A stretch of DNA of 64,000 nucleotides, taken from assembly GCF_010119975.1 (NCBI RefSeq), contig NZ_CP048222.1, forward strand, positions 1,054,001 through 1,118,000, read 5' to 3'. This DNA is from Rhodocytophaga rosea. Lineage in GTDB: Bacteria; Bacteroidota; Bacteroidia; Cytophagales; 172606-1. The notes under the pieces are model-generated. The model had not been told where the DNA came from. It did not search any database and saw only the letters and a list, made by a program, of their open reading frames with translations. The position numbers were made by a program, and so were the translations under genes. Positions 34,464-51,628 of this stretch are shown one piece after another (the stretch's first letter is position 1; each line of letters starts with the position of its first letter).

Positions 34464-37349
34464 CTACTGTTTATTTATCAGGTTCAGCAGTAATTGCGTA
34501 AGATCATTATTCAATTTATCCAGCTGGGTTTTGTTAGCTGTAGACCTGATCCCGGCACTGTTCCATCGGTAATAATATTTTTCAAAGGTTTTCATATCTT
34601 CCGTATTCAGCCAGAAACACCTGGAGGATACATTGGCCGGCTGGTTGTTAAAAATAGTCTCTTCAGCAATGGCTTTAAATTCAGGATTATGAAAACGGGC
34701 TGTCCAGTCGGGGAGTAATATGCTGATACGGTAGGAGTAAAAATCTTCAGGCACTTGTGGCGTATCTTTGGTATATTGTACATACAGAGAAAGTTTGTCT
34801 TCAAATGGGATAATATCATCCTTATCTGACAGGAAATTATACAAACGTTCCATTTTTTCGTGAATTTCCTGCACCGATTCATAAGCTTTCATACTTACCA
34901 TGGTGAGAGGTTCGTTCCAGGCAGGTACAGGAAATTTCATATGTATTTCAAAATCACCGTCCGAACGGCCTTCTACTGAGTAATTGGCATAGGTGGTAAT
35001 ATGTTCCCGGAAAGCCTCAACCATCATCTTCCGCTGCGAAAAAGTATAAGTACTTACTGTGCTCAAAAAAGGGGTTCCCAATTCATCCAGTACATAAAAT
35101 CCAAATTTCTTTTCTTGCGCCTCCGGACGTAATAAAATATGTTCAACCAGATGCAAGCCTTCGCTGCTAATATTAAGCTCTTTTAAGAAATCAATCAACG
35201 AAAGTACGCCTGTTGTAGCTTCATCCTGCGTCTCAAACTGCCCGATATACATCCATTCCTGCTCTTCACCGGAATTGAATACTACCTGAAAGGAGGAACC
35301 ATCTTTAGCAGCTCCGATTCTGTAATGGTGCAGAATAATTCCTTTTCTGAGAAAGTCAGTAGTGAGCATTTTGCTCTGGAAAGGCAATGTTTTCTGCAGT
35401 AAATCCTGCTTTTGTTCAGACGTAAAAGTATCCGATGACACATCTGCTAAATCTATGTAATCGAAGGACTTATCAATTTGATCCGGATCAATGGTTGACT
35501 GATGCAGGCTATATGCTTTTTCCCAGAGCTGGCTATCTGTTTGAGAAGCATATTCATCCAGAAGTTTTAAACCATACCCTTTAAAATGGCCGATCAGGGA
35601 ATGTTCTTCATAAATCATTTGCTCCGTATATTTCCCGTTCACCATACCCAGGCCTAATAGCACACAGAGCTTTGCTTCCATACCAGCCACATTTTCTGTA
35701 CTCAAGCTATCGTTGAAATAGTCGGAAGCTTTGGCGCGGTTGTGATTAATGTAAGGCAGAAATTGCAGTAATCTGGTTTTGTCCCGGACCAGGTGCCGCT
35801 CAAATTCCTCTTCGTTGAAATAATAATTAAACTGCGAAAGAGAATACTGTACAAATGTTTCCCCATGAATAGCCAGCAGGTAATCTAAAAATCTACTGCG
35901 CCGGTTGATGAAATTATCCTGGGCCTGCACCAGTCTGGACAGTCCCTGCCGATATTCCAGCGGAATATGGAACGCCCCAAACAAAGCATCCCTGATAAAC
36001 TCATAAGGTCTGTTGGCAAGCAGTGGAGACACATCGGGCACGGCATACAAGTTCTGGTGAAAGTAAGTTTGCTCTACATCACTTTTAATTGAAAGTATAT
36101 CTTTTACATGGGCCAGTTGTGAGAGATAATTCGCCAGGATTTGTTCAAACAACAGCAAAAATCCTTTCAATTGCTTTGCTTGTGCCCTGCGCTGCGGGGA
36201 AGGAGACTGTGGTAAACCATAACTGCCAATACCATAAGTTACCGGAAAATGATTCTGTATAGAATAATATTCATCAATTTTCAGGTCCTTGCCCTTGCTT
36301 ACTTCAATTGCCTCTTCTGTGAGCCTGTAAATTCTTCGGTTGGCCGATTGCAATTCATTCAATTTGCGGCGTACAATCTGACGATCGACCAGGGTATAGT
36401 TTACAGAACCTTTGGAAAACTGGATGGTGTAATTCCTGCTTTTTCCTTCAAATTCTGTAAGTAATTTTGGAAGTTTGTTTTCGTCAATGTCTACCTGATT
36501 ATGATAAGTATCTTCGCCAATTTTAAGATACAGATTTTTTACACTGGTTACTCCTCTGACCTGCATCATGATCTTAGTGATTTCCGAAATCAGAATCTTG
36601 TTCTGTTTGGGCAACAGGTCTTCAGTTTTAATAAATCCATTTTTAAGCAAGGGACCATTAAAAATTTCATTCAGACTATAATCTTGTTCCAGCAATTCTT
36701 CCAGCGAATAAATCCTGATCTGCGGACATAAATACTCATCTACCCGGAAAAATATTTCTGCCAGAATAGATTCCAGGTCACGGGTGCCATCAATTTCCAC
36801 ATCGGCATGAATGGATATATATATGTATTCCAGCAATTTGATCTCAGCTACATCTTCGCAAATATTCCGGTTGCGGGCGTATACTTCCAGCACATTATGT
36901 AATACTTGTTGCCTGCGGTCTTCTTCTTTAATCTGATCATCTACATTCACTACAATTTTATATAATCCCCTGAGTGAACTTTCCTCTGACTCTACCGGAA
37001 TAAACCATACATTTTTTACATCCAGTATCGAATCGAATACGAGCCGCCGGTAATCGTTGATGGTAAGTGCATTGCTTGGCAGAATCTGAGATGGTCTAAG
37101 GAAAGACTGATCAGCTTTGGAGCTATTATACAGATGATCCTGAATATCAAAATCTACCCGGTACGAAAGGTCGGTGAGCGCATAACAAAGCACTTCCAGT
37201 ATAGTAACGCCAGGATCATGCTCGTTGTAATCCGTCCAGAAGGCACCGCATAACTGCTGAATGTATTTGACTCCTTCAGAACGCAGGTATTCAAAGTTTA
37301 GTCCCTGATTTTCGGGTGGCTTATTATCAATAAATAATGGCTTTTCCAT
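34464..37349 (-). CDS. eCIS baseplate-wedge protein (J-like N-terminus; Afp12-like)
   Basis: 961 residues without signal peptide. The N-terminal FWTDYNEHDPGVTILEVLCYALTDLSYRVDF is the wedge signature shared by baseplate J-like proteins. A long, mostly alpha/beta middle (GYGLKLLDEY, SLIGHFKG) is followed by LHLVEHILLRP near residue 720, a recurring motif of large contractile-injection-system baseplate proteins. The last gene of the locus, it lies downstream of the J-like protein, fibre and 72-residue genes, as Afp12 follows Afp11 in classic loci. Assignment to Afp12 rests on position and size as well as motif. Confidence 0.75.
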   Translation of the reverse strand: MEKPLFIDNKPPENQGLNFEYLRSEGVKYIQQLCGAFWTDYNEHDPGVTILEVLCYALTDLSYRVDFDIQDHLYNSSKADQSFLRPSQILPSNALTINDYRRLVFDSILDVKNVWFIPVESEESSLRGLYKIVVNVDDQIKEEDRRQQVLHNVLEVYARNRNICEDVAEIKLLEYIYISIHADVEIDGTRDLESILAEIFFRVDEYLCPQIRIYSLEELLEQDYSLNEIFNGPLLKNGFIKTEDLLPKQNKILISEITKIMMQVRGVTSVKNLYLKIGEDTYHNQVDIDENKLPKLLTEFEGKSRNYTIQFSKGSVNYTLVDRQIVRRKLNELQSANRRIYRLTEEAIEVSKGKDLKIDEYYSIQNHFPVTYGIGSYGLPQSPSPQRRAQAKQLKGFLLLFEQILANYLSQLAHVKDILSIKSDVEQTYFHQNLYAVPDVSPLLANRPYEFIRDALFGAFHIPLEYRQGLSRLVQAQDNFINRRSRFLDYLLAIHGETFVQYSLSQFNYYFNEEEFERHLVRDKTRLLQFLPYINHNRAKASDYFNDSLSTENVAGMEAKLCVLLGLGMVNGKYTEQMIYEEHSLIGHFKGYGLKLLDEYASQTDSQLWEKAYSLHQSTIDPDQIDKSFDYIDLADVSSDTFTSEQKQDLLQKTLPFQSKMLTTDFLRKGIILHHYRIGAAKDGSSFQVVFNSGEEQEWMYIGQFETQDEATTGVLSLIDFLKELNISSEGLHLVEHILLRPEAQEKKFGFYVLDELGTPFLSTVSTYTFSQRKMMVEAFREHITTYANYSVEGRSDGDFEIHMKFPVPAWNEPLTMVSMKAYESVQEIHEKMERLYNFLSDKDDIIPFEDKLSLYVQYTKDTPQVPEDFYSYRISILLPDWTARFHNPEFKAIAEETIFNNQPANVSSRCFWLNTEDMKTFEKYYYRWNSAGIRSTANKTQLDKLNNDLTQLLLNLINKQ

Positions 37350-37495: not shown

Positions 37496-37714
37496 TTAAT
37501 CCTCTTCTCCCAGAATTCCATTCAAATCCATTCTGGTTTTCTTGATTGTTCCATTCGGTGTTTTTGGGGAGGCAGGCGGCTGGCTGAGCTGTTCATTGGC
37601 CTGTTCATTGAGTTTCCCAATCAGTTCATATACTTCTGCAAATGGCAGTTTTCCCAATGCCTTAAAAATAGTACTCGCTTCTTCTATGCTGACCGTAAAA
37701 GTTACTTTTTTCAT
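37496..37714 (-). CDS. Small conserved-looking protein of the eCIS locus
   Basis: 72 residues, unrecognised. The first ~40 residues form an amphipathic alpha/beta pattern (KKVTFTVSIEEASTIFKALGKLPFAEVYELIGKLNEQA). A proline-rich linker (SQPPASPKTP) leads to a basic-then-acidic tail (KKTRMDLNGILGEED). It lies between the fibre-like and 961-residue baseplate genes and is on the same strand. It could be a chaperone, a baseplate accessory or a targeting peptide; nothing in the sequence decides. Confidence 0.55.
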   Translation of the reverse strand: MKKVTFTVSIEEASTIFKALGKLPFAEVYELIGKLNEQANEQLSQPPASPKTPNGTIKKTRMDLNGILGEED

Positions 37715-37803: not shown

Positions 37804-38541
37804 TTACTCACTTTCCATACTTTGGTCCATAAATTTATCGAACCAGAGGCTGGTAATGTGGTATTTGACATAGTAAGGTCCATTGTAAGTGCTTCTGGTA
37901 CGCATTTCCAGGCTATAATTATAAGTTGAACCTGTCCAGCGTAGGTCAATTTTATGGCCACGGCCGCCATAATAGGCATGTTTAATGTCAATACAATCGT
38001 TAGAATCGCCAAATGTACTCAGGGCTATGGCATGAATAAGCGCATATTTTCCGGTTTTTTTCTTGCCTACCCCGGCCACTATTTCCAGTACATGACAACC
38101 ATTAAGTTCTGTCAGCACCGGATGCCAGTTGCCATCTGCGAGCACTTTGCCAGTATGAAAAGTACCCATCCTCCCACTCATGGCTACTGTCCCATTCACA
38201 TCGAGTTCATATTCCGGATTGCTGCGGTTCACGCCAATTTTGCCATCATTTTGGAGGGATAGAATATTATCGCCCAGGTGATTATTGATGTGCAGGTTAG
38301 AATCGCCACTGTCAATTTCCAGGCTCCAGGCCGCATTCTTATCTTCAATATTCCGGTAAAAACTGATCAGTTTTTTAGAAGTGCCAATTGGCGAAAGCAT
38401 CAGGCCATCATCTATGGTCTTCGACATGCCATCGTCGACCTTATTGATCATAGACTCGATCAGGTCGTAAAAATGCCCTTCTGCCGGCAGTTGCCCTTTC
38501 CGGAAAAAATTTTTAAGGGTGCTTCTGTTTTGTAATGGCAT
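37804..38541 (-). CDS. Tail-fibre/adhesin-like protein of the eCIS
   Basis: 245 residues. The N-terminal ~60 residues (LKNFFRKGQLPAEGHFYDLIESMINKVDDG) look like a helical attachment stub. A middle beta-rich shaft follows, with HINNHLGDNILSLQNDGKIGVN and YELDVNGTVAMSGRMGTF, the kind of short repeats seen in phage tail-fibre shafts. The C-terminal ~115 residues (HVLEIVAGVGKKKTGKYALIHA, KIDLRWTG, YSLEMRTRS, VKYHITSLWFDKFM) form a discrete, possibly receptor-binding domain. It sits where Afp13-type fibre genes occur. Function is inferred from architecture and position. Confidence 0.65.
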   Translation of the reverse strand: MPLQNRSTLKNFFRKGQLPAEGHFYDLIESMINKVDDGMSKTIDDGLMLSPIGTSKKLISFYRNIEDKNAAWSLEIDSGDSNLHINNHLGDNILSLQNDGKIGVNRSNPEYELDVNGTVAMSGRMGTFHTGKVLADGNWHPVLTELNGCHVLEIVAGVGKKKTGKYALIHAIALSTFGDSNDCIDIKHAYYGGRGHKIDLRWTGSTYNYSLEMRTRSTYNGPYYVKYHITSLWFDKFMDQSMESE

Positions 38542-38721: not shown

Positions 38722-38766
38722 CACTCACTCACTCACTCATTCACTCATTCACTCATTCACTTACTC
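38722..38766. repeat. Tandem tetranucleotide repeat (ACTC/ATTC)n
   Basis: ACTCACTCACTCACTCATTC and further ACTCATTC units directly after the end of the J-like gene. It is degenerate at a single position. Confidence 0.88.
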
Positions 38767-41700
38767 TATAATAAAATCTTCGCCCAGTTCTAAGTATTCC
38801 ACACCGGCCTGCATCGATTGTTCTTCCTGTTTTTCTACCAGCACAGTGATCTGGTGTTCATGGGCAGGCACTAGTACAGACCAGGGTTTAGTTGCTTGTA
38901 AAGAAGCTCTTGCCACACCTTCTCTGGCTGTATCAATTAATACATATTTTCCTGTAAAATCCCTGGCCGATTGTACCATCGAAAATTTGGTAATAAAATC
39001 CACATACGGCAGTGTACGCATAAAACTGAGAATATCCGAACTGTATATTTTGCCGCCTAGCTCAATCCCTTTCTGATTGGCAAATATATTCCTCGACAAA
39101 TGCCTGTTAATTTGTTCATTTAGTTTCTGAATATAAAAGCCATAGCTGTATCCGCTGGTGAATTTTACATTACAAATGATACGGATGCGTTCGTACTGAG
39201 GATTACGCACTTCTACTTTCACAAACGGAGAGGTAAACTGCTGTATATAAGATTTCACCTGGTATAGTACCTCACTACTCACTGTAGGTTCACTGGGATT
39301 AGCTGCAAATTGATAATACGGTGTTACTACAATCAACACACTGCCAGGGGAATCCAGATTTTTACTGGTCATGTTGGGCAGGCAGGTCGCTTTGAAAATA
39401 GAAGGAAATTTCTCCAGTACCAGTCTTTCATAATCCCAGGTCATGATGGCTCTGTCTTTATGCCGCAGGCGCTCAGCTACTCTGGTATAAAACTTAGGCA
39501 TACTTTCTCTGGGCATGCCTCCAAAAGAATCCAAAGGCTGCACTACCGATTGTATTCCTTCAATGGTATCTATGGAACGCTGAATGGTAAAAGCCGGCAA
39601 TACTTTCTCCAGATACTTTCCTTCCCAGTTACTTTTTTCGGATAAGGTAGCCGTTAACACTTGTGTAAATACACTCACGGTTTTGGAAGCAACCCGTATG
39701 TTTTTCAATACAGCTACTCTTAACCAGTATAGGTCTGGATCAACAATGGTATTGCCCTTTTTGAGCTGGTAAGGTAATTCTACCATAATAATTCCGGTTT
39801 TGAGAAAACCATTGGTATCATCACGAAGTATTTTGGAAGGTGCCAGTAAATACCACTCATTATCCATCAAATAACTCCACTCTACTACCGGCGGATCATC
39901 TTCGGAAGAAACCGTAGAATCGTCCATCATTTCGAACAGAAACGAAACCGTTTGGGCTGGCTGAACGCCCATGAGTCCGATTAACAAACAGCCTTCAAAG
40001 TCGTACGATGGCAATACATAGGTAAGTTGCCTGGAATTATCCGGGTAGACCATATTTTCGCCAAAGGGATGAATATGAAAAATCTGGCCTTTGGAGGCTG
40101 ATTTTTCGGTTTTGCGGGAACGGTCTTTCAAAGAAATAATGGAGGAAGAAGCATAATCCAGGGTAATAGATTTCACCAGTGGCGTATAAGGTGGATTAGG
40201 CATTTTCCTGAGGTCTTTGGCAGATTTGGTTTTGCTATTGAAAAAGCCGGATTTTGAATTGGCAATGGCTACTTCCGATAATACTGAAGGATACACACTA
40301 TGCGCAAAGGCAAAGTCCGGTTTATTTAATTCAAGTTTAATAAATCCCCGCCTGGTGGTGTGTGTATACACCAGCTTATCTTCTATAGCGGCATAATTAG
40401 AAGGCAGCCGGATGTTTTTAATATCAATTGTATTGATAGAGGTTTTATTATGCAAGGCAGCATCAGGCTGTAGCTTTCCATTCAGTCCATTTTTATCCAC
40501 GGTTCTGAATAACTTCACATGTTGCTGTTCCGATAGAGTGTCAGGTTTCCAGCGGCCTTCATCCAGCACGGATAAAGTAGCTTCATATACAGTATTGTCT
40601 ATTTTGAGGCCGTAGCCATCATAATATCCCAGAAATCCATTGCTATGTCTGGGCAGATCAAACCATTCGATATGTATATTTAATTTTTCCAGCGGCTTTT
40701 GAAATACTTCATTGCTGCCAATCAACAAATAATTTCCTACACTGGGTAAAGGGCCAAAAGGATAATACGGTGTATCAAGGTTGAGCTGGCCAATCTGATT
40801 ATAAAGCTGCAGGTTTTTTACGCCTTTTACCTGTGTATTCACCGTTACCTGCTCCAGCACCATATTACTTAGCAAAGAATACAGGTACACATAAGACTCG
40901 CTATTGAGCAGCAGCCTGACAATGGGTAATTCTGTAGCAAAACGTCCGGAATGTACTTCATCATCAAAGCCGATAATAGCAGGTTCAGTATAGCCCAGGT
41001 CAAAACGTATGTTCAGCAGGAAATTTTTCTCATCTTGTGTCACTACGTATTTATGTACCTGGTACCATCCCTGGTCGCTTGTAACAGATATGAGAAAAGC
41101 ATCCAGAAATATTTTGATGAACGTTTCTTTCTCAGAAGTTCTGGAAGTAAAGGCAATATCTTCAATATATTGTTTGAATCTGGGAAAACTTTGTTCTGAA
41201 AATGTAAAGCCCAGGCTTATTTCCCGGTTCCCTTCACGCATCAGTAAAGTTGGAGAGGCTACGGCAAAACCCATGGTCGCATTGGTCATGGTTTTTTCTT
41301 TTATTCCTTTTCCAGTCTGGTCTTCGCCAAAGGTGGCATAGGTTTTTTTACGGATGTTTCCCGTAATATCAGCTACAGGTGCTTTTAATGGTATACCAGC
41401 CACCAGCATATTTCCGATAAGTGTCTTGCTGATCCCTCTGACATTTAAGGCCTTATTATACATAAAAATGGTATCCATGCGGTTGATCTTCACCCGGTTA
41501 ACCTGCAACTCACTGTCTGCCTGGTAAACAATATCATTGCCATTTTCGTCTTCGCCAGCCAGAAAACCGGTGCCTTGTTTCACCTGAGCTACCTGGGCTG
41601 CATCGTCAATAAGAAATTTCAGGTATACGGTATCCGGAACCGGTGGCTTAGGTTTCTGTTTAAGAATAGACAGGTAGTAAAAATCCAGATGCCGTCTGGT

Positions 41701-42519
41701 AAGATTATTTATATTTCCCTGGGCAATCGTAAACAATTTCAGAAAAGAGATAAATAAGGCAACTTCCGGATAATGAATATCTGTTTGTAAGGACTGCGCC
41801 AGATATTCCGGAGATTTTAATTTAAGATACAGAAGCGTTTCGTAGAATGCCTGAAACAATTGTTGTAAACTTTCAGTGGCCAGATCTATTTTTTCTTTCA
41901 GTGTATCGCCTTCATATATTGCTGAAGAAGGCTCAAATTCGGATAGTCCCCAGAAGAGTCCAAAAGATGTATAATCCAGGCCGATTTTTTCTCCCAATGC
42001 CTCCGCTTGTTCAGCTCCTTCATCATAAGATTTCAGTTTACCTAAGGCTACGCTCAGTTTGCCATAAATGGCATTCGTAATTTCATTCCTGACACTTACC
42101 TGGGCGCTGGTAAAATCTTCTACGGCCTTTAGTTTAGTATGCCAGAATTCAAACAACTGGGCTATATCGTAAATCTCCTTAAAGCACAAACGCAGGTAAT
42201 GCAGTTTTTTTGCCGGATTGAGAAAAAGGCGGGCTTTATATATATATTGTTTAAAACGGGCTTCTGTTTTTACCGGCTCTGTCTGGGCCATGGCTGCCAG
42301 AATCACCGTTTCGTCATTCAGAAACTCCGACCAGTCGCCATCTATTTGTCCATTAAGGTCATAAAAGTTAATAAGTTTAGCAAAACCAGTGGCAAATACC
42401 AGTAAATCTTCCAGAGAACGCTCGTCTATCTTTACGTAGTTAAAATCAAGCGCCTCCAGGAAACGATTGTCCTGGGCAGTACCACTGCTTATCACTTTTG
42501 AAAAATCTTCTGCCTTCAT
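38761..42519 (-). CDS. eCIS baseplate J-like protein (Afp11/gp6-like)
   Basis: 1252 residues. The most diagnostic part is near residue ~1045: SFGGMPRESMPKFYTRVAERLRHKDRAIMT, followed by WDYERLVLEKFPSIFKATC, typical of J/gp47-like baseplate wedge proteins of contractile injection systems. An immunoglobulin-like/beta-rich middle (VYLKFLIDDAAQVAQVKQGTGF, ADSELQVNRVKINRMDTIFMY) precedes it. The C-terminal part contains FVKVEVRNPQYERIRIICNVKFTSG, as in gp6-type proteins. It forms the wedge ring around the spike and triggers sheath contraction. It lies 98 bp downstream of the gp25 gene. Confidence 0.86.
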   Translation of the reverse strand: MKAEDFSKVISSGTAQDNRFLEALDFNYVKIDERSLEDLLVFATGFAKLINFYDLNGQIDGDWSEFLNDETVILAAMAQTEPVKTEARFKQYIYKARLFLNPAKKLHYLRLCFKEIYDIAQLFEFWHTKLKAVEDFTSAQVSVRNEITNAIYGKLSVALGKLKSYDEGAEQAEALGEKIGLDYTSFGLFWGLSEFEPSSAIYEGDTLKEKIDLATESLQQLFQAFYETLLYLKLKSPEYLAQSLQTDIHYPEVALFISFLKLFTIAQGNINNLTRRHLDFYYLSILKQKPKPPVPDTVYLKFLIDDAAQVAQVKQGTGFLAGEDENGNDIVYQADSELQVNRVKINRMDTIFMYNKALNVRGISKTLIGNMLVAGIPLKAPVADITGNIRKKTYATFGEDQTGKGIKEKTMTNATMGFAVASPTLLMREGNREISLGFTFSEQSFPRFKQYIEDIAFTSRTSEKETFIKIFLDAFLISVTSDQGWYQVHKYVVTQDEKNFLLNIRFDLGYTEPAIIGFDDEVHSGRFATELPIVRLLLNSESYVYLYSLLSNMVLEQVTVNTQVKGVKNLQLYNQIGQLNLDTPYYPFGPLPSVGNYLLIGSNEVFQKPLEKLNIHIEWFDLPRHSNGFLGYYDGYGLKIDNTVYEATLSVLDEGRWKPDTLSEQQHVKLFRTVDKNGLNGKLQPDAALHNKTSINTIDIKNIRLPSNYAAIEDKLVYTHTTRRGFIKLELNKPDFAFAHSVYPSVLSEVAIANSKSGFFNSKTKSAKDLRKMPNPPYTPLVKSITLDYASSSIISLKDRSRKTEKSASKGQIFHIHPFGENMVYPDNSRQLTYVLPSYDFEGCLLIGLMGVQPAQTVSFLFEMMDDSTVSSEDDPPVVEWSYLMDNEWYLLAPSKILRDDTNGFLKTGIIMVELPYQLKKGNTIVDPDLYWLRVAVLKNIRVASKTVSVFTQVLTATLSEKSNWEGKYLEKVLPAFTIQRSIDTIEGIQSVVQPLDSFGGMPRESMPKFYTRVAERLRHKDRAIMTWDYERLVLEKFPSIFKATCLPNMTSKNLDSPGSVLIVVTPYYQFAANPSEPTVSSEVLYQVKSYIQQFTSPFVKVEVRNPQYERIRIICNVKFTSGYSYGFYIQKLNEQINRHLSRNIFANQKGIELGGKIYSSDILSFMRTLPYVDFITKFSMVQSARDFTGKYVLIDTAREGVARASLQATKPWSVLVPAHEHQITVLVEKQEEQSMQAGVEYLELGEDFIIE

Positions 42520-42617: not shown

Positions 42618-43049
42618 TTACAGACTAGCCGGCTTATAGCGGACTTCATTGCCCTCAATAATATAGAATGGATATACCATATTACTTCGGGTATTTGTTT
42701 TTCTGATGATATATATTAATTCTATCAGTAACAACCCATCTATATGTTCATCTAATTTTATATCTACCTGATTGAGAGTGATTCTGGGTTCAAAATAGAG
42801 CACAGCAAATTCAATTTTGCTTTTCATTTCATTGATAAGCGTACTGTTCACCGATTGAAACACAAAAGAATCCAGATCGCATCCATATTGAGGTAACATG
42901 ATTCTTTCGCCAGGTCTGGTAGACATAAGAATTTGCAGGCTTTCCCGGATGTCCTCTTCTTCTGAAACCAGCATCACACTGCCAGACCGTTTATCGAAAG
43001 TAGGTGGAAACTGCCAGCCAATTCCCAGAAAAGTTTTACGGTGTTTCAT
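42618..43049 (-). CDS. GPW/gp25 family baseplate protein (Afp9-like)
   Basis: 143 residues. The gp25 signature is clear: GIGWQFPPTFDKRSGSVMLV, then EEDIRESLQILMSTRPGERIMLPQYGCDL, where the EED...ILxTxxGERxMxPxYGC pattern includes the conserved Arg-Pro-Gly-Glu-Arg. gp25 contacts the sheath-like start of the tail and links baseplate wedges to the first sheath ring. It is 34 bp downstream of the PAAR gene and starts the baseplate-wedge block. Confidence 0.93.
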   Translation of the reverse strand: MKHRKTFLGIGWQFPPTFDKRSGSVMLVSEEEDIRESLQILMSTRPGERIMLPQYGCDLDSFVFQSVNSTLINEMKSKIEFAVLYFEPRITLNQVDIKLDEHIDGLLLIELIYIIRKTNTRSNMVYPFYIIEGNEVRYKPASL

Positions 43050-43083: not shown

Positions 43084-43374
43084 TTATCCTCCAATCATTA
43101 CTGTCATACAGCCCAAAATAATAGTTCCGCCATGTGCGGTAGAATCACCTAGTCTGGCAGCAGGCATCCCTCCTATTAACACAGTAGCTGAGCCTTTAAT
43201 AATGGTATCTGGTGGGCCAGTGCAAACGACTATATCTCCTACTATGGCAGCAGGCATCCCCCCAATCAATACAGTAGGGCATCCTGGCCCTATAATGGGG
43301 CCACCTACATGTGGTACTAATGCAGTTAGCATCGGGCAAACATGCATATCGGTAGATCTGGCAGCTGGAGGCAT
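43084..43374 (-). CDS. PAAR-domain spike-tip protein (Afp10-like)
   Basis: 96 residues of almost pure PAAR repeats: PPAARSTDMHVCPM, TVLIGGMPAAIVGDIVVCTGPPD, ATVLIGGMPAARLGDSTAHGG and TVMIGG. Ligands for the tip metal (His, Cys) are visible in DMHVC, VVCTG and AHGG. PAAR proteins sharpen the VgrG spike. No C-terminal effector domain is fused. It follows the VgrG-like gene by 47 bp. Confidence 0.95.
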   Translation of the reverse strand: MPPAARSTDMHVCPMLTALVPHVGGPIIGPGCPTVLIGGMPAAIVGDIVVCTGPPDTIIKGSATVLIGGMPAARLGDSTAHGGTIILGCMTVMIGG

Positions 43375-43421: not shown

Positions 43422-45209
43422 TCAATTAATCATTACAATGCCGCCTTTGATGGTCGTCTGGCCGGAACCTTTTACTTCTGTCATGGCACCTTCCGCAGCA
43501 AACTTCATACTGCCTTTCATAGCTACATTCATTCCTTCTACTTTGGCATCCCCTGTTGCTTTCGCCTCTATATTACCCTGTGCTTCCATCACTATTTTTC
43601 CTTGTGCCTTCATGATAATATCTTTCTGACTGGTAATAGCGATCCCCTCCTTATTCATCTCTATTTTATTTTTGTTCTGATCCTCAATAATGATATTCCT
43701 TTCGTCATCATTCAGGGTAATAGAGTTTCCGCCGGGCGTCTCAATTTTTGTAATTTTTTTCTCGTCATCAAAGGTGATCTTAAGCTTGCTTCTGGTAACA
43801 AATCCTTTGGTCTTATTGGTATTTTCCGGTATGAAAGGCGGTTTAGAACTTTTACTGTGTACAGAACCCATAATAATGGGATACTGTGGATCTTCATTCA
43901 GAAAACCAACAATCACTTCGTCGCCCACCTCCGGATAAAAAAATGTACCCGACTCATTGGTAGCATACATGGTAGATAGCCTGGCCCACCAGCCCTGGTT
44001 ATCTCCCAGGATTGGAATTTTTATTTGTATGCGGTATTCTCCAGCTTCGTCTTCGTCAATTTTGACCACTTTTGCTATGAACAAGCCCTTCATCGGAGCC
44101 ACCATTCCCGATGCCGGAGGCGCATCAATTAAAGGGGTTTCTTCGGAAAACCAATCAAAGGAAAGCCCCATTTCAGCCGTAGTAGTCCAGTTTCCTTCTT
44201 CCACAATGTGGGTCACCCCACTTACAAAAGCCTTTCCATTAAACTGGCTGCTCAATCCGGATAATTCTATCAGGGTACCGGGCTTTATAGCGGCTGTGCC
44301 TATGCAGGTTACTGTACCTTTAATTTTCGATAAATACGACCGGGTATGCTTGGCATTGGCCCAGGCTTCCAGCACACTTACATCTTTAATGCCGGCAGTT
44401 GTCTGCAATAAATACTCATCTAATCCGATGGTTTGAGCCAGCTTAGAAGATGGGGTACTGCCCTGACTAAGCTCATCGGGCGTTTTTGAAGAAGATTCTA
44501 CCAGTGCCTGTTTATCTGAATCCCAGGCATGGGCAACCACTTTTGTGAGCTGCGTACGGGCATCCATATCCGCCTGAAAATCATACATATTAACGCCATA
44601 GGTTATCGAAACGACCGGTTCGCTGCTTAGGTCAGGTTTTTTTACAAGCAGTTTTCCATCATCAGTGATGGCAACTAGTCCATTGATTTCAGCACGCATC
44701 ATCACAAAATCCCAGTCGGTACAATAGTGCTGTATTACTTCTTTGTGCTGAAAAGTAGTGGCATCTATTTGTTTTTCTATGCCATACGCATTTATTATTT
44801 CCGTCAGAATATCACTATCTTTTTTCTTAACAAACAATTTATTTTTTCTACCCACGGTGAGTTTAACCGCTTTGTCTTTGCATTCAATGCTTAAATAAGA
44901 ATCACCGGATTTAGTAATTTTTAATCCATGCTTAATAATAATGCCTTTAAATATGGTTTTATTATTGTTTTCATACCCCGCCTGAATTTCTATTTCCACA
45001 CCCGGAGCGAAATCCTTGGAGTCACTCTGGTTCCAGGGTTGATTTTCAGATACACCACCATCTACTATTTTCAATTTAGCGGTAGAAATCTTATTAATTC
45101 CTTTTGTAACCTGAATAGACATCAGGTCATACCCGGCTGTATTCACCTTGCCATTGGTAAGGATGTTATAAGATACAACTCCTCCTTCCTGTTCTTGATT
45201 ACCAGCCAT
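43422..45209 (-). CDS. VgrG-like spike protein (Afp8; gpD-gp5 fusion)
   Basis: 595 residues. An N-terminal gpD/gp27-like region (VTKGINKISTAKLKIVDGG, LFVKKKDSDILTEIINAYGIE, VIQHYCTDWDFVMMRAEING) is followed by an OB-fold gp5 domain (GLFIAKVVKIDEDEAGEYRIQIKIP, FYPEVGDEVIVGFLNEDPQYPIIMGSV) at ~370-460. The C-terminus is a triple-stranded beta-helix needle (KIVMEAQGNIEAKATGDAKVEG, GQTTIKGGIVMIN). No lysozyme or effector domain is inserted. It starts 4 bp after the end of the LysM gene, so the two are tightly coupled. Confidence 0.95.
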   Translation of the reverse strand: MAGNQEQEGGVVSYNILTNGKVNTAGYDLMSIQVTKGINKISTAKLKIVDGGVSENQPWNQSDSKDFAPGVEIEIQAGYENNNKTIFKGIIIKHGLKITKSGDSYLSIECKDKAVKLTVGRKNKLFVKKKDSDILTEIINAYGIEKQIDATTFQHKEVIQHYCTDWDFVMMRAEINGLVAITDDGKLLVKKPDLSSEPVVSITYGVNMYDFQADMDARTQLTKVVAHAWDSDKQALVESSSKTPDELSQGSTPSSKLAQTIGLDEYLLQTTAGIKDVSVLEAWANAKHTRSYLSKIKGTVTCIGTAAIKPGTLIELSGLSSQFNGKAFVSGVTHIVEEGNWTTTAEMGLSFDWFSEETPLIDAPPASGMVAPMKGLFIAKVVKIDEDEAGEYRIQIKIPILGDNQGWWARLSTMYATNESGTFFYPEVGDEVIVGFLNEDPQYPIIMGSVHSKSSKPPFIPENTNKTKGFVTRSKLKITFDDEKKITKIETPGGNSITLNDDERNIIIEDQNKNKIEMNKEGIAITSQKDIIMKAQGKIVMEAQGNIEAKATGDAKVEGMNVAMKGSMKFAAEGAMTEVKGSGQTTIKGGIVMIN

Positions 45210-45213
45210 ATGT

Positions 45214-45885
45214 TTATTTAATAGGAGGAAATAGTAGAGTAGTACCGGGAATTAGGTTTCTGAAATTAACCAATCCGTTTATTCTGGCCACTTGCACATA
45301 TAGGGTGCTGTCTTTATAAATTTTATTACACATCAGTGGAAGGGTATCTCCTTCATTTACGACCAGCGTATGAGATAAATCCGGTGAATTCCGGTTTTCC
45401 CGCTTATTTTGTTCATCAGGCGTGCTTGCTCCATTGAAACTCAAACCCAATTTTGCCCGGAGAGGGTCGCCATCAGAATCAAAAAGGGTGTAACTAATGT
45501 CGCAGGTTGTAATACGGCCTTTAAATTCGAGTGTTCCCCAGTTTATCTTGGTATAGGGCGGTTCATGAATCTTGCCATCAAAAGCAAGGGCTACTTTCAG
45601 AAATTTGTTTACCAGATCTGTTACCGTTTTTTTAGGTGTTTGCCCGTCATCATCAATAGCACCAGTACCATCTAAATACAAATCGAAAGATATTGTTTCC
45701 GGTTCTGTATTTTTGTATTTGGATTCAGAACCTGCCCTTCCAGGTGGCTGGCTTTGATTGCTAAGGGATACGCTCAGCTTGCGGCTGATGGTAGCCGGAT
45801 TAATAAGGGCAATAAATGTCTCTTTGGGTTGTCCCTCACAAGTAGCATTCTGATATGACCCAATTTTCAATTTGGTTAAGCTCAT
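45214..45885 (-). CDS. LysM-containing hub protein of the eCIS (Afp7-like)
   Basis: 223 residues. The N-terminal ~160 residues (KETFIALINPATISRKLSVSLS, PETISFDLYLDGTGAI, WGTLEFKGRITTCDISYTLFD) are the CIS_spike_tip/tube-initiator fold found in Afp7-type proteins. A C-terminal LysM domain follows (HTLVVNEGDTLPLMCNKIY...LIPGTTLLFPP). The Afp7 homologue links the inner tube to the VgrG spike, and its LysM may contact peptidoglycan. The spacing of 4 bp to the spike gene and 6 bp from the preceding DUF5908 gene shows a tightly packed operon. Confidence 0.88.
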   Translation of the reverse strand: MSLTKLKIGSYQNATCEGQPKETFIALINPATISRKLSVSLSNQSQPPGRAGSESKYKNTEPETISFDLYLDGTGAIDDDGQTPKKTVTDLVNKFLKVALAFDGKIHEPPYTKINWGTLEFKGRITTCDISYTLFDSDGDPLRAKLGLSFNGASTPDEQNKRENRNSPDLSHTLVVNEGDTLPLMCNKIYKDSTLYVQVARINGLVNFRNLIPGTTLLFPPIK

Positions 45886-46096: not shown

Positions 46097-46564
46097 TTAT
46101 TCACTTGGGTGTACCAGCTCGAATTTTGTGTAAGTAAACTGTAGGGTAGCCACTACGATTTCATTATTGCTTGCATTAAAATTTGAAATCTCAAATTTAG
46201 TAGGGTAAGCTTTTTTAAAGCTCCATGACATAATGGGCTGATGCTTCTCCACCGAAAGCAAACTCACTAAAATATCTTTCCGCTGAATGTTCATAAAGTT
46301 TGATTGTATGGTATCGCGGCACCATTTATCCAGTTTGGAACCTTGTACCACCAGTCCTCTTTTTAAAACCAAAGGGGAATACTGAACAGATTGGGGGAGA
46401 CGGTGAACAAATCCGTTTTCCCCTCCTTCTGTTACATCTTCTGTTTTGATCTCCATGGAAATTCCGGAAGCTTCCTGAAAACCGGCATCGATTTCACCGA
46501 AAGTATTATCACTTACTTTTACTTTAAAATGAAAACCTACCGGTGGATAATAATAAGTTGCCAT
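46097..46564 (-). CDS. eCIS tail tube protein, second copy (Afp5-like)
   Basis: 155 residues. The gp19-type tube fold is visible: PPVGFHFKVKVSDNTFGEIDAGFQEASGIS, MEIKTEDVTEGGENGFVHRLP, VLKRGLVVQGSKLDKWC, and ISWSFKKAYPTKFEISNFNASNNEIVVATLQFTYT in two pieces. It resembles the next-upstream tube protein but is longer and lacks its KVPGLKKTSNITLKKG loop. By position it corresponds to Afp5, a hub-proximal tube ring. It begins 1 bp after the end of the tube gene. Confidence 0.92.
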   Translation of the reverse strand: MATYYYPPVGFHFKVKVSDNTFGEIDAGFQEASGISMEIKTEDVTEGGENGFVHRLPQSVQYSPLVLKRGLVVQGSKLDKWCRDTIQSNFMNIQRKDILVSLLSVEKHQPIMSWSFKKAYPTKFEISNFNASNNEIVVATLQFTYTKFELVHPSE

Positions 46565-46565
46565 T

Positions 46566-47006
46566 CTAACTTTCTGCTGTAAGTTCTATGCCTTCGTGTG
46601 CCAGTTCAAAAGTTTCAATGGCAATTTCATTAGCATCCGACTTAAGGTCTGGCGAAGATATTTTAACTGGAAAGGCATGCCGGATGAGCCAGGTGAATAC
46701 GGCATGATGTTCTTCATCCAGCAATTTAATGGTGATATCCTTACGTCTGGCAGGATCAGTCTGGGAAAGATTATACCAGTCCCAAAGGGCATCATCGCCT
46801 TTAAACATACCTTTTTTGAGGGTAATGTTGCTGGTTTTTTTCAATCCAGGAACTTTCTGCACCAGAAAGCGCTCATCGTCGCCAGCACGGTAGTCAATGG
46901 TCTGGCTTTCCATTACCAGGCCTGTTACTTCTGTAAAAGATAATTCGCCGCCGTCCCATGTTACATCGAAGTGGAACTTCGGAATCGGCCATACTGCATC
47001 TGCCAT
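46566..47006 (-). CDS. eCIS tail tube protein (Afp1-like)
   Basis: 146 residues, a T4-like gp19 family tube protein: PIPKFHFDVTWDGGELSFTEVTGLVMESQ, IDYRAGDDERFLVQKVPGLKKTSNITLKKG, LLDEEHHAVFTWLIRHAFPVKI and a C-terminal NEIAIETFELAHEGIEL. It forms the hexameric inner tube that is expelled when the sheath contracts. It follows the sheath gene by 77 bp and should be expressed in large amounts. Confidence 0.94.
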   Translation of the reverse strand: MADAVWPIPKFHFDVTWDGGELSFTEVTGLVMESQTIDYRAGDDERFLVQKVPGLKKTSNITLKKGMFKGDDALWDWYNLSQTDPARRKDITIKLLDEEHHAVFTWLIRHAFPVKISSPDLKSDANEIAIETFELAHEGIELTAES

Positions 47007-47083: not shown

Positions 47084-48712
47084 TTAGCTCTCCTGCATCT
47101 TTTGCTGGAAAGTAATTACAATGAATTCAGCCGGACGGGAAATAGCTACTTTCACACTAATGCGCATAATGCCATCCAGAATATCATTGGGAGTCATCGT
47201 GGTGCCTAGTCCAACCAGTACTTCATAAGCCTGATCTGGTGTAGTACCCACCAGACCACCCTGCCGCCATAGATCATCCAGGAAAGATGCAATCATGCTG
47301 CGGATCAGAATCCAGGTAGCTGCCGTATTGGGTTCGTACACATAGGCTTTGGCAGCGAGTTTAATAGACTGCTCCATGTAAATCAATGTCCGTCGAACGT
47401 TAATATAACGGTAATCCTGGCTGTTGCCATCCAAAGTTCTGGCACCCCAGATCACGGTACCCTGGCCGATAAAGGAACGGATCGCATTTACTGATTTACC
47501 GGTAACGGTTACATTAAGGTCTTCCTGATCGTCGTTGGTGAGTTTTACCACCGGGGCAATTACAGAATTGAAACCCACATTGGCTGGCGCTTTCCATACG
47601 CCTCTGGTATTATCTACTGCAGCATATACCCCTGCCATCCCTGCACTAGGTGGAATCACATTCATTTGCGCCCGTACCTTCTGCATAATGGTTTTAAATG
47701 TAGGACTGATTGCCAGTAAAGTCTGGTTGAGGGTGTCGGCATCTGTATCTGCCTGCGATAACTTCCGGACCTCTGTTTTAATTTCGTCTACTTTCTTTGG
47801 ATTATCGGTAGTCAGTTCAGCTTCTCTGGACAATAAAGTTTCAAGTTGATCGATATTGGAGACACTTTTATAGCTTACTTCTTCATTCTGCACAATGGAT
47901 GAATATACCCAGGGATAATAGGCAGCCCCATAACTTAAATTATTGGAACCTACTCCTTCCCGGAATCTGGTGATCACATCGTTTTCATCATAGGTTCTGG
48001 GCAAAAAGCCATTGTATACATCCAAAATAGCAAATCGGTTTCTCATCTTAAAGCCACAATGCAATAACATGGCCTGCTGCAAGGCATAACAATCGGCTTC
48101 TTCCAGCATTACTGCTTCCGGAATAATAAGCAAGGTAGGCTCTTCCTCACTGATGAGTACGCCTATCGCATCTTCCAGGGCTTTTTTATTAATTGAATTG
48201 ATTCTTCGTTTACCAGCATCAGCTGCTTTTCCGGCTTTTTCCACAATCTTCACGCCTGCGTCTTCTTTTGGAACTTCGTCTTTAGGTTCTTTAGTTGTTT
48301 TTTCAGGTTTGGCAGGCAAAGCAGGTGCATAATAAGAACCTACAGAAATCACATAGCAGTTTTTTCCGCCATTGGCAAAAAACATACGGATGCTGTTATA
48401 AAGCAAAAATTTGGAGGTCATATCCGACAGCAGGCTATATCCTTTTCCATCCAGTTCAAAATCAAATTCCTGCAAGGCATTGGGTGCTGCTTTAATCGTA
48501 AATGTGCCCGGAAATCCGCCACCAAAAATACTCTGATAGTCGGCCAGAGAAGTAACACGAATAGGGCGGTTGATGAGGGATTGTCCGCCTCGGCCTGCTT
48601 TTTCGGTATATCCGATAAAAGTAGGAACTGCCGTTGGGATACTGACCAGCGAGTTGGGGAAGGCTTTTTTCTCTTCCACATAAACCCCGGGGGTTGCTAA
48701 CGTTTGTGCCAT
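47084..48712 (-). CDS. eCIS contractile tail sheath protein
   Basis: 542 residues. The N-terminus MAQTLATPGVYVEEKKAFPNS with FIGYTEKAGRGGQSL is typical of eCIS sheaths. The C-terminal half is highly diagnostic: GVWKAPANVGFNSV, then VNAIRSFIGQGTVIWGARTLD, NVRRTLIYMEQSIK, FLDDLWRQGGLVGTTPDQAYEV and FIVITFQQKM. This is the conserved sheath core that assembles around the tube. Only one sheath gene is present, where Afp/PVC have two or three. The middle (AGKAADAGKRRINSI) is a Lys/Asp-rich variable insert likely on the outside of the sheath. Confidence 0.95.
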   Translation of the reverse strand: MAQTLATPGVYVEEKKAFPNSLVSIPTAVPTFIGYTEKAGRGGQSLINRPIRVTSLADYQSIFGGGFPGTFTIKAAPNALQEFDFELDGKGYSLLSDMTSKFLLYNSIRMFFANGGKNCYVISVGSYYAPALPAKPEKTTKEPKDEVPKEDAGVKIVEKAGKAADAGKRRINSINKKALEDAIGVLISEEEPTLLIIPEAVMLEEADCYALQQAMLLHCGFKMRNRFAILDVYNGFLPRTYDENDVITRFREGVGSNNLSYGAAYYPWVYSSIVQNEEVSYKSVSNIDQLETLLSREAELTTDNPKKVDEIKTEVRKLSQADTDADTLNQTLLAISPTFKTIMQKVRAQMNVIPPSAGMAGVYAAVDNTRGVWKAPANVGFNSVIAPVVKLTNDDQEDLNVTVTGKSVNAIRSFIGQGTVIWGARTLDGNSQDYRYINVRRTLIYMEQSIKLAAKAYVYEPNTAATWILIRSMIASFLDDLWRQGGLVGTTPDQAYEVLVGLGTTMTPNDILDGIMRISVKVAISRPAEFIVITFQQKMQES

Positions 48713-49861: not shown

Positions 49862-50883
49862 TTATAAATTGAATTGTTCTTTAAAACGGATGTTATATTG
49901 AGTGCCGATGCCTGCTAAGACAGTATTGAGTTTAGCTTGAAAGCACTCGAAGTTGAGATAATCATCTGCTTTTAGCCACTCATACTTGAGCTTTCGCCAA
50001 TAGATCTCGGCCTTGTTCAGATGGGGACAATACCGGGGCAAAAAGAAAATATACAAATCTTTTTGCTGCCATTGTTCCACTTCTGCTAAAAAGGCTTCAC
50101 TTGTGTGGGTAGGGGCATTATCTATCACCAACACGGTAGGTTTAATGAGTTGCTCACAAAAGTGGTGGATGGAGTCAATGATAAATTTACTTGTCACATT
50201 GGCTTGGGTTTGGTAAGTAGTGGCACTATTATCTGTTTGGAAAAAGCCTAGCAGGTTGATCTTCTTGTCTTTGCGAGGCAGAATGCCGATGGTTTCTCCC
50301 TTCAATTGCCAGCCATAGGGTAGGCAGGGATCCATCGACAGACAAGTCTCATCACCAAAGAATAAGTCAATGGCTTTTAGTTTGTATAGCTGCCATAGTT
50401 TGGCTAACTGTGCTTCTTTGGCTTGTCTTTCAAGCGGGTCTTGTTTGCTTTTGAGGCTCTTACGCAGGCGACGGAAAGTGTAGAGACGCTTTTTAAAAAA
50501 CGCCTTAGCGTCTCCGGATGCACCTTTACGGCTAGTTCTTTCTCAAGTTGAGCAGTGGCTTTACGGGCACTTTGCCGGTACTCACTGATGATGGCTTTTA
50601 GTTGCCCCTCATCCACTTGGGACAGTGTCGCTTTTCGACCCTGCCCCCTTGATCGCATCAGGCCTACTAAGCCTTTCTGCTGCCAGTTGGTAAAGCAATT
50701 GAGCACACTCTGGTAATTGCTGTCAAGTAGTAAGGCAATTTCCTTAGCCGTTTTACCTTTGGCACTAAACAAGAGCATCTGGCAATGCTTGCGGAATTCT
50801 GTTTTGGGATGATTCTGCAAACCTTCTTCTAAGGTGAGTTTCTCTAAAGCATCTAGCTCTACATAACGTTCTTGACGGCTCAT
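49862..50883 (-). CDS. IS630-family transposase made by -1 frameshift
   Basis: The first frame (50883 to 50404) carries the N-terminal helix-turn-helix (AKEIALLLDSNYQSVLNCFTNWQQKGL). The second frame, open from upstream of 50491 down to 49862, carries the DDE catalytic domain: FFGDET, VLVIDNAPTHTSEAF and PHLNKAEIYWRKLKYEW, so all three acidic residues are present. Joining them by a -1 shift at the TTT TTA AAA stretch (50491-50499) gives one 340-residue protein that reads across the junction as LRRFLKKRLYTFRRLRKSL, matching normal IS630 transposase length. The second frame also has an ATG at 50335, but starting there would lose the first catalytic Asp. Confidence 0.85.
50491..50497 (-). other. 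-1 frameshift slippery heptamer T TTA AAA
   Basis: In the transposase reading frame the minus strand reads TTT TTA AAA AGC, so the heptamer T TTA AAA fits the X XXY YYZ slippery pattern exactly at the frame junction. Shifting back one base there joins the two transposase frames. Confidence 0.72.
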
Positions 50884-51088: not shown

Positions 51089-51628
51089 TTACAGGTTATT
51101 TCCCAGGCCTTTGAACAGCGAAAGATCGCCCGTAATATTACCTTCCTGAAAGGTGATCATCCGTACTTTGTAGAGCACCGATGGCAGGTATTTGCCCCCC
51201 AGTACCCCCCACAGATAACTCAGGTTCTGAAAATCCTGGTTTACCATCTCAAATACCAGTTTGTCGATATTTTCGTCCAGATCTGGTGTATTCTGGTGGT
51301 TCAACACATTATTGGCCTGAAAAAAACTAATGACAGCCGACAAAAATTTGAGCCCTTCTGCATAGTTATTTTCATTAAAATACACCGAAAACAGCACAAA
51401 CAAATTGATATGAATCGATGGATTATTATTCGGTATATTGATTCTGCCTACAGTTTCCTGTTGCAGATTCACCAGCGTCAGCACCACTTTATCCGGATCA
51501 GTAATAGCGATACTCCCATCCTGGTTGACAATGCCTGAAATAATTACCTTATCCTGACCCAATGCAAACCTGTTCCTGAAATAGGCATTCAGTTTTTCAG
51601 CCACCGCCGTAAGTGCATAATAGATCAT
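51089..51628 (-). CDS. DUF4255 family cap protein (Afp16/Pvc16-like)
   Basis: 179 residues. The DUF4255/Pvc16 N-terminal fold is recognised from MIYYALTAVAEKLNAYF, then PSIHINLFVLFSVYFNENNYAEGLKFLSAVISFFQ, LVFEMVNQDFQNLSYLWGVLGGKYLPSVLYKVRMI. In eCIS this protein caps the sheath-tube at the distal end and controls its length and stability. It is the first structural gene, 140 bp after the GH18 gene, but the IS630 element now separates it from the rest of the operon. Confidence 0.9.
   Translation of the reverse strand: MIYYALTAVAEKLNAYFRNRFALGQDKVIISGIVNQDGSIAITDPDKVVLTLVNLQQETVGRINIPNNNPSIHINLFVLFSVYFNENNYAEGLKFLSAVISFFQANNVLNHQNTPDLDENIDKLVFEMVNQDFQNLSYLWGVLGGKYLPSVLYKVRMITFQEGNITGDLSLFKGLGNNL

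What the first reader, a model, noticed from the sequence alone, without database searches (positions are those of the whole stretch)
37804..38541. Fibre-like protein with a C-terminal domain that may determine target range
The first half is fibre-shaft-like and the last ~115 residues form a separate domain (AGVGKKKTGKYALIHA, LRWTG, EMRTRS). If it is the receptor-binding tip, it decides which cells the eCIS hits. The protein is short for a fibre.
Basis: inference. Interest (0 to 1): 0.5.

Follow-up and report, generated by a model that had tools for sequence, protein, structure and literature searches.

The report
Conserved short fibre of injection machine
This gene encodes the short, probably three-stranded fibre that clips onto the base of a phage-tail-like injection machine, and because its end knob is well conserved across many bacteria, it probably holds on to something common rather than choosing a particular target cell.

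Summary
It lies between the baseplate genes cis11 and cis12. The anchor is homologous to Cis13 (All3316) of the Anabaena thylakoid CIS (profile E 2.3e-5), which sits in the same slot. The shaft matches Bdellovibrio MAT fibres. The C-terminal domain is predicted as an eight-stranded beta-sandwich (pLDDT 94), closest in fold to T4 gp9 and Acinetobacter phage tailspike tips. This fits the 'eBAP2 mini-fibre' class published in January 2026: a new member of a known kind. The target-range claim is not supported: the knob is about as conserved as the anchor, under purifying selection, and found once per genome, only in this protein, in the genomes sampled. Most likely it is a general attachment or docking fibre with a conserved partner. 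In four other CIS loci the slot holds longer fibres with a related anchor and a Peptidase_S74 end.

The parts
37804..38541 (-). mini-fibre gene (Cis13 slot), 245 aa
   Evidence: ORF and translation; relatives; synteny
38422..38541 (-). residues 1-40: baseplate anchor, two helices
   Evidence: profile match to All3316/Cis13, PDB 7b5h, E 2.3e-5 over residues 1-40; helices 6-14 and 21-30 in the model
38323..38421 (-). residues 41-73: conserved beta stretch between anchor and shaft
   Evidence: mean pairwise identity 0.50 in 71 sequences
38167..38322 (-). residues 74-125: short fibre-type shaft with a DGKIGVN..P..ELDVNG motif
   Evidence: profile match to Bdellovibrio MAT fibres, 8ond E 4.7e-10 for the whole chain over three stretches, best single stretch 6e-4; VIA Z 8.8, 75 residues, rmsd 2.0, to 8onb
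37807..38166 (-). residues 126-245: C-terminal knob, predicted eight-stranded beta-sandwich
   Evidence: model pLDDT 94; VIA Z 10.7 to T4 gp9 172-288 and 7.8 to 6e1r; Foldseek best 6e1r E 8e-4
37496..37714 (-). small 72-aa ORF between fibre and cis12, conserved in part of the family
   Evidence: tblastn hits in related loci
34464..37349 (-). cis12-like baseplate wedge gene, 961 aa
   Evidence: position; weak phrog_6 baseplate wedge match E 7.9e-4; TIGR02243 E 3.4e-6, below cut-off; no Pfam match
38761..42519 (-). cis11 baseplate gene, 1252 aa, the expected docking partner
   Evidence: Baseplate_J; 7aeb Alg11 E 1.1e-113 and 7b5h All3317 E 6.7e-107
42618..43049 (-). gp25 sheath initiator (cis9)
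   Evidence: GPW_gp25 E 8e-24
43084..43374 (-). PAAR tip
   Evidence: PAAR_motif
43422..45209 (-). VgrG-type spike
   Evidence: TIGR01646 E 9.5e-64
45214..45885 (-). CIS_tube protein (cis7 position)
   Evidence: CIS_tube E 1.5e-46
46097..47006 (-). two tube proteins (46097-46564 and 46566-47006)
   Evidence: Phage_T4_gp19
47084..48712 (-). sheath
   Evidence: Phage_sheath domains
51089..51628 (-). Pvc16-type cap protein
   Evidence: Pvc16_N E 1.5e-30

Best explanation
It is the Cis13-slot mini-fibre (published class: eBAP2 mini-fibre) of a contractile injection system. Three copies probably wind into one short fibre. The N-terminal 40 residues clip it to the baseplate wedge formed by Cis11 and Cis12. 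A short beta shaft carries three copies of a beta-sandwich knob. The knob holds a partner that is the same, or nearly the same, across many bacteria: a common surface glycan or membrane feature, or a component of the producer's own envelope or machine. So it works as a general attachment, docking and perhaps trigger-coupling element, not as the variable part that picks the target. Shown here by computation: gene, domain layout, anchor homology, synteny, fold, conservation, lack of a transmembrane-like segment. Inferred: trimer, docking to Cis11/Cis12, nature of the knob's partner.
For: Anchor homologous to Cis13/All3316, whose trimer contacts the Cis11 C-terminal extension (PMC8894136, passages); PMC12923769 says that eBAP2 might bind Pvc11. 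Same gene slot: the paper gives All3315 as Cis12 and All3316 as Cis13, and 7b5h names All3317, which matches window cis11 over nearly its whole length. cis11 lies directly upstream in 73 of 80 named loci; cis12 or the small ORF lies within 1.7 kb downstream in 60 of 80, 7 of the 80 contigs being too short on that side. Anchor distances follow cis11 and cis12 distances (Mantel rho 0.70 and 0.77). Shaft of MAT type. Knob folds like phage tailspike tips and gp9. The fibre is more conserved than cis11 in 73 of 73 loci and than cis12 in 53 of 53, and about level with sheath, tube and gp25. Knob: mean identity plateau 0.49-0.50, dN/dS median 0.10, maximum 0.32, one strong copy per genome. 39 of the 40 order genomes with the closest cis11 (E below 1e-100) carry the knob.
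Against: PMC12923769 reads such tips as putative saccharide-binding domains and describes eCIS fibre domains as rapidly evolving. Knob distances follow cis11 and cis12 less closely than the anchor does (rho 0.33 and 0.42), no better than they follow the tube (0.42) and the CIS_tube gene (0.38), so the knob answers to something other than the baseplate, which could be a target receptor. The 80 loci were picked by similarity to this fibre, which favours it in the conservation comparison; PAAR is better conserved still, in 40 of 41 loci. Thirteen of 55 order genomes with a cis11-like gene have no knob. In some genomes fibre and cis11 lie apart (about 51 kb in G056, about 6 kb in G077), and three MAG loci show no CIS gene within 10 kb. 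One protein (L152, 291 aa) matches residues 1-36 where no CIS gene was detected. No trimer was modelled and no ligand is known.
Confidence: 0.68

Rival explanations
1. Receptor-binding tip that sets target range: the knob binds a specific surface glycan or protein of chosen prey or host cells.
For: Fibre fold with a tip like 6e1r and 6c72, and more weakly LecA and EclA; PMC12923769 classes such tips as putative saccharide-binding; knob evolution partly uncoupled from the baseplate.
Against: The expected variability was not seen: knob core as conserved as the anchor, purifying selection, identity plateau, one knob type across the 80 named loci from Bacteroidota and a few other phyla.
Confidence: 0.15
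2. Connector or trigger like T4 gp9: the knob docks a further component (a longer fibre or a membrane complex) and passes its movement to the baseplate.
For: Best structural match of the knob is the T4 gp9 C-terminal domain, Z 10.7, 109 residues, rmsd 2.9, then its Klebsiella phage KP1 counterpart, Z 9.1; similar size (245 against 288 aa); baseplate slot; conservation of a structural part.
Against: No sequence homology to nine gp9 proteins (hhalign probability 0.1 percent or less); similar sandwiches end many viral fibre-like models and Foldseek ranks tailspikes above gp9; no candidate distal partner was sought or found.
Confidence: 0.15
3. Anchor to the producer's own membrane, making the machine T6SSiv- or tCIS-like rather than released.
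For: Cis13 of Anabaena anchors the machine in the thylakoid membrane (PMC8894136); full-length relatives sit beside cis11 in Cardinium (L097, L099, L105) and in the genome whose length equals that of Amoebophilus; PMC12210884 suggests inner-membrane anchoring for Aasi_0556.
Against: No transmembrane-like segment in the window protein or in 80 of 80 named relatives (best 19-residue hydropathy 1.25); in the quick cis11 tree the window groups with Cyclobacteriaceae, Fulvivirga, Cytophagaceae and Microscillaceae systems, not with Cardinium and Amoebophilus.
Confidence: 0.12

Closest known systems
eBAP2 mini-fibres of eCIS (PMC12923769)
   Same: short length, helical N-terminal anchor of about 50 aa, beta shaft, C-terminal domain similar to 6E1R, gene downstream of Baseplate_J, Bacteroidota among the hosts
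   Different: their models were not at hand for a direct match; this report finds the knob slowly evolving and also present in symbionts that bear a T6SSiv
Cis13/All3316 of the Anabaena tCIS (PMC8894136, PDB 7b5h)
   Same: homologous residues 1-40, same slot between cis11 and cis12
   Different: All3316 is 154 aa and has a predicted transmembrane helix at its C-terminal end; here a beta-sandwich knob and no transmembrane-like segment
Aasi_0556 of the Amoebophilus T6SSiv (PMC12210884)
   Same: very probably the 38 percent identical full-length relative found in G181, whose contig length equals that genome
   Different: the identification rests on genome length and a single match, not on a locus tag
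Bdellovibrio MAT fibres (PMC10769870)
   Same: shaft motif and fold; S74 and non-S74 ends, as in the two kinds of occupant of this slot
   Different: fibres of a predator's surface, with other tips
T4 gp9
   Same: fold of the C-terminal domain, size, baseplate role
   Different: no detectable sequence homology
Alg19 of AlgoCIS (PMC13314943)
   Same: homotrimeric tail fibre at the baseplate
   Different: 1443 residues with a shoulder domain bound to Alg12; not the same kind of protein

Membership tests
eBAP2 mini-fibre | short N-terminal helical baseplate anchor | tested here: met
   residues 1-40 conserved with helices 6-14 and 21-30 in the model, where block pLDDT is only 58-81
eBAP2 mini-fibre | phage-fibre-like beta shaft | tested here: met
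   MAT fibre match by profile and by fold
eBAP2 mini-fibre | C-terminal domain similar to 6E1R | tested here: met
   Foldseek best match 6e1r E 8e-4; VIA Z 7.8, 98 residues, rmsd 3.3
eBAP2 mini-fibre | gene downstream of a Baseplate_J gene in a CIS operon | tested here: met
   window; 73 of 80 named loci
eBAP2 mini-fibre | match to the published eBAP2 model | not testable with these tools
   the model is in supplementary data, which could not be read
eBAP2 mini-fibre | homotrimer | not testable with these tools
   only single-chain prediction was available
Cis13 of the tCIS | homologous N-terminal baseplate anchor | tested here: met
   profile E 2.3e-5 over residues 1-40; single sequence only E 0.14-0.65
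Cis13 of the tCIS | gene between cis11 and cis12 | tested here: met
   PMC8894136 passages
Cis13 of the tCIS | C-terminal transmembrane helix | tested here: not met
   hydropathy maximum 1.04 in the window protein, at most 1.25 in 80 relatives
T4 gp9 | C-terminal beta-sandwich fold | tested here: met
   VIA Z 10.7, 109 residues, rmsd 2.9
T4 gp9 | sequence homology to gp9 | tested here: not met
   hhalign probability 0.1 percent or less against nine gp9 proteins
Alg19-type fibre | long fibre with an N-terminal shoulder domain | tested here: not met
   245 aa against 1443 residues (PMC13314943)
Bdellovibrio MAT fibre | shaft of the MAT type | tested here: met
   8ond E 4.7e-10 for the whole chain, best single stretch 6e-4

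The most novel reading that the evidence does not exclude
The mini-fibre knob is not a target-choosing domain at all but a conserved docking module shared by released eCIS and cell-bound T6SSiv: it binds one universal partner, for instance an own-envelope component or a common glycan, and couples that contact to baseplate firing as gp9 does in T4. An abundant published class of 'receptor-binding' CIS fibres would then have been misread as specificity determinants.
Probability: 0.3. Interest if true: 0.6.

Novelty: new member of a known kind. Interest (0 to 1): 0.36.

Why it matters
eCIS fibres are generally described as fast-evolving target selectors. In this short class the end domain is instead well conserved. 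If that holds, target predictions from mini-fibres would be unreliable, and the conserved partner of the knob becomes a concrete thing to look for. It could help explain how closely related machines are either released or kept on a membrane.

Tried and rejected
Alg19: from gene order in other Algoriphagus species I first took this protein to be the counterpart of the AlgoCIS tail fibre Alg19. PMC13314943 gives Alg19 as 1443 residues, so this was dropped.

T4 gp9 family: strong fold match, but profile comparison with nine gp9 proteins gave nothing; kept only as a likeness.

Phage or plasmid origin: tblastn against 50,697 phage records gave 4 records (two of them one phage) at E 0.5-1, covering 20-29 percent. 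The viral-contig scan gave 139 pattern hits, none confirmed. Plasmids: 3 records of Persicobacteraceae; the two that I opened hold CIS operons, the third was not opened.

Known families: no Pfam match above cut-off, no NCBIfam match at E 0.1, PHROGs only weak (E 0.0026 and 0.079); the PDB profile search with the knob alone found nothing better than E 1.1. Fold families not listed are not excluded.

Released or membrane-bound: the cis11 tree (quick method; 44 of 75 rows kept, near-duplicates and short rows dropped) did not settle the mode.

Limits of the counts: A1 used 20 of the 29 other loci then fetched plus the window; A2 used 70 of 80 named loci plus the window; A3 used 38 of 80 plus the window. 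Six A2 rows start at the first matched residue because no ATG lay near. The 111 sequences include genomes held in both collections, and its 111 pairs (identity 60-99.5 percent, dS below 2) are not independent; 40 were printed. One search compares only matches covering 60 percent or more of the gene. In the phylum sample the profile A1 matched 37 of 395 genomes, most of them in the shaft or anchor only; of those loci I refetched the ones of G205, G346, G365, G437 and G544 and did not study the rest. Two further long fibres in L149, at a contig end, were not scanned for S74.

Full report
Observation. The ORF at 37804-38541, minus strand, is 245 aa long and contains the quoted motifs. It is a conserved gene. 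In 194 sampled genomes of the order, 48 match at E 0.001 or better: 44 over the whole or nearly the whole length (two as split matches) and 4 in the shaft only. The scan of genome contigs found 118 relatives, of which the best 80 were kept; most are from Bacteroidota, with four Pseudomonadota loci (L079, L096, L102, L108) and one Desulfatitalea locus (L100). The search of its own genome gave one match, itself.

Setting. The gene lies in a contractile injection system cluster: sheath, two tubes, CIS_tube, VgrG spike, PAAR, gp25, Baseplate_J (cis11), this gene, a 72-aa ORF, a cis12-like gene, and a Pvc16-type cap gene. cis11 lies directly upstream in 73 of 80 named loci; cis12 or the small ORF lies within 1.7 kb downstream in 60 of 80, 7 of the 80 contigs being too short on that side. 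Exceptions: in three MAG loci (L057, L058, L063) no CIS gene was detected within 10 kb, and in some order genomes fibre and cis11 lie apart (about 51 kb in G056, about 6 kb in G077). Window cis11 is closest among solved structures to Alg11 of AlgoCIS (7aeb, E 1.1e-113) and All3317 of the Anabaena tCIS (7b5h, E 6.7e-107).

Anchor. A profile of 71 relatives matches All3316 (Cis13, 7b5h) over residues 1-40 with E 2.3e-5; single sequences gave only E 0.65 and 0.14. PMC8894136 (passages) reports that Cis13 is a tail fibre-like trimer that binds the baseplate through its N-terminal domains, contacts the Cis11 C-terminal extension, and holds the machine in the thylakoid membrane by a C-terminal transmembrane helix. 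It gives All3315 as Cis12 and All3316 as Cis13; with All3317 matching cis11, the slot is the same. The window protein has no transmembrane-like segment, and neither have 80 of 80 relatives (a simple hydropathy test). One caution: a 291-aa protein in L152 matches residues 1-36 at 42 percent in a stretch where no CIS gene was detected.

Shaft. Residues 67-137 match Bdellovibrio MAT fibres (8ond E 4.7e-10 for the whole chain over three stretches, best single stretch 6e-4; three further MAT chains below E 0.001), and the model agrees (VIA Z 8.8, 75 residues, rmsd 2.0, 8onb). PMC10769870 (passages) describes MAT fibres as trimers with and without an S74 chaperone end.

Knob. The full model has mean pLDDT 86.8, the knob alone 94.0 with pTM 0.86. 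Foldseek's best PDB matches for the knob are the tailspike 6e1r (E 8e-4), then 6c72 and T4 gp9. VIA ranks gp9 first (Z 10.7, 109 residues, rmsd 2.9), then its phage KP1 counterpart (9.1), 6c72 (7.9) and 6e1r (7.8), with the lectins EclA and LecA at 5.4 and 5.3. Among viral models 67 match at E 0.001 or better; of the 50 listed most are uncharacterised or unnamed, several are called tail fibre, and some belong to giant viruses. Profiles show no sequence homology to gp9.

Is it variable? It does not look so. Mean pairwise identity is 0.55 for the anchor, 0.26 for residues 74-102 and 0.52 for the knob core. Against the window, the fibre is more conserved than cis11 in 73 of 73 loci and than cis12 in 53 of 53; sheath, tube and gp25 are about level (ahead of the fibre in 24 of 53, 28 of 62 and 31 of 66), and PAAR is ahead in 40 of 41. 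These loci were chosen by fibre similarity, so the comparison favours the fibre. Mean knob identity stays at 0.49-0.50 over the range of cis11 identity from 0.20 to 0.35, out of 2,701 pairs in all. Pairwise dN/dS of the knob has median 0.10 and maximum 0.32, that of residues 1-73 median 0.06 (pairs not independent). Against my reading, knob distances follow cis11 and cis12 more loosely (rho 0.33 and 0.42) than anchor distances do (0.70 and 0.77), and about as well as they follow the tube (0.42) and CIS_tube (0.38) genes. So the knob is tied to something besides the baseplate.

Where else is the knob? Its own profile gave 44 strong matches in 44 of 194 order genomes, one each, all in frames of 238-357 aa, and three weak matches at E 0.005-0.01 (at most 22 candidates scored per genome). 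In the phylum sample it matched 6 of 395 genomes, own genome included, all the same protein (at most 11 scored). Of 55 order genomes with a cis11-like gene, 42 have the knob; of the 40 with the closest cis11 (E below 1e-100), 39 have it. Seven of seven other sampled genomes of the same genus and family lack both.

Other occupants of the slot. In L150, L153, L154 and L155 the place between cis11 and cis12 holds longer proteins whose similarity to this one is confined to residues 1-37 or about 3-125 (three in a row in L150). These six all carry Peptidase_S74 above Pfam's cut-off, two of them narrowly. So a related anchor in one slot carries either a short fibre with a fixed knob or long S74 fibres.

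Symbionts. Cardinium loci L097, L099 and L105 hold cis11 and this gene side by side; PMC8831229 (passages) states that Cardinium hertigii also has a T6SSiv. G181 holds a 38 percent identical full-length relative beside cis11; its contig length, 1,884,364, equals the Amoebophilus asiaticus genome length in PMC2613243 (passages). PMC12210884 (passages) treats Aasi_0556 as Cis13 of T6SSiv and suggests a part in inner-membrane anchoring; that the G181 gene is Aasi_0556 is my inference.

Literature. PMC12923769 (abstract, outline, Results parts 1 and 2 of 4, passages) describes five anchor classes; its eBAP2 group includes short mini-fibres, the most abundant group in its database, with putative saccharide-binding ends similar to 6E1R, and also S74 and C1q ends; it says that eBAP2 might bind Pvc11. 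The window protein fits this class. I did not see the conservation result above in print in the searches, but none of these was worded for it, and the supplements and most of parts 3-4 of those Results were not read.

Conclusion. A real, ordinary mini-fibre of a CIS, a new member of a known kind. The target-range reading is weakened by the conservation of its knob; a general docking or attachment role with a conserved partner fits better. Which partner, and whether this machine is released or kept on a membrane, remains open.

Noticed in passing
window 38722-38766: A CACT tetranucleotide repeat (11.2 copies, 80 percent matches) lies at the end of cis11 and before the fibre gene; meaning unknown.
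   Followed up: partly
window 49862-50883: Two transposase ORFs (DDE_3 and HTH domains) sit inside the CIS cluster between the Pvc16-type gene and the 356-aa gene.
   Followed up: partly
own genome C1:6881475-6884627 (L179, L180): The CIS tape measure gene (PF19268) lies about 5.8 Mb along the contig from the window's CIS cluster, so the system is split.
   Followed up: partly
window 37496-37714: A 72-aa ORF between fibre and cis12 is conserved in part of the family and lies next to the Amoebophilus relative; it could be an assembly helper, which is a guess.
   Followed up: partly
L150 9415-15042: Three long fibre genes in a row with a related anchor and S74 ends between cis11 and cis12; this genome (G102) also has a mini-fibre gene beside another cis11.
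   Followed up: partly
L057, L058, L063: The mini-fibre gene stands alone, with no CIS gene detected within 10 kb.
   Followed up: partly
L152 9561-10436: A 291-aa protein shares residues 1-36 of the anchor but no CIS gene was detected in the 19.5 kb around it, and Pfam gives no domain.
   Followed up: partly
L141, L142: CIS operons with this fibre lie on large Persicobacter and Aureibacter plasmids.
   Followed up: no
window 51769-53610: A glycosyl hydrolase 18 protein with a hydrophobic C-terminal segment next to the CIS cluster; GH18 genes also lie near related CIS loci.
   Followed up: no
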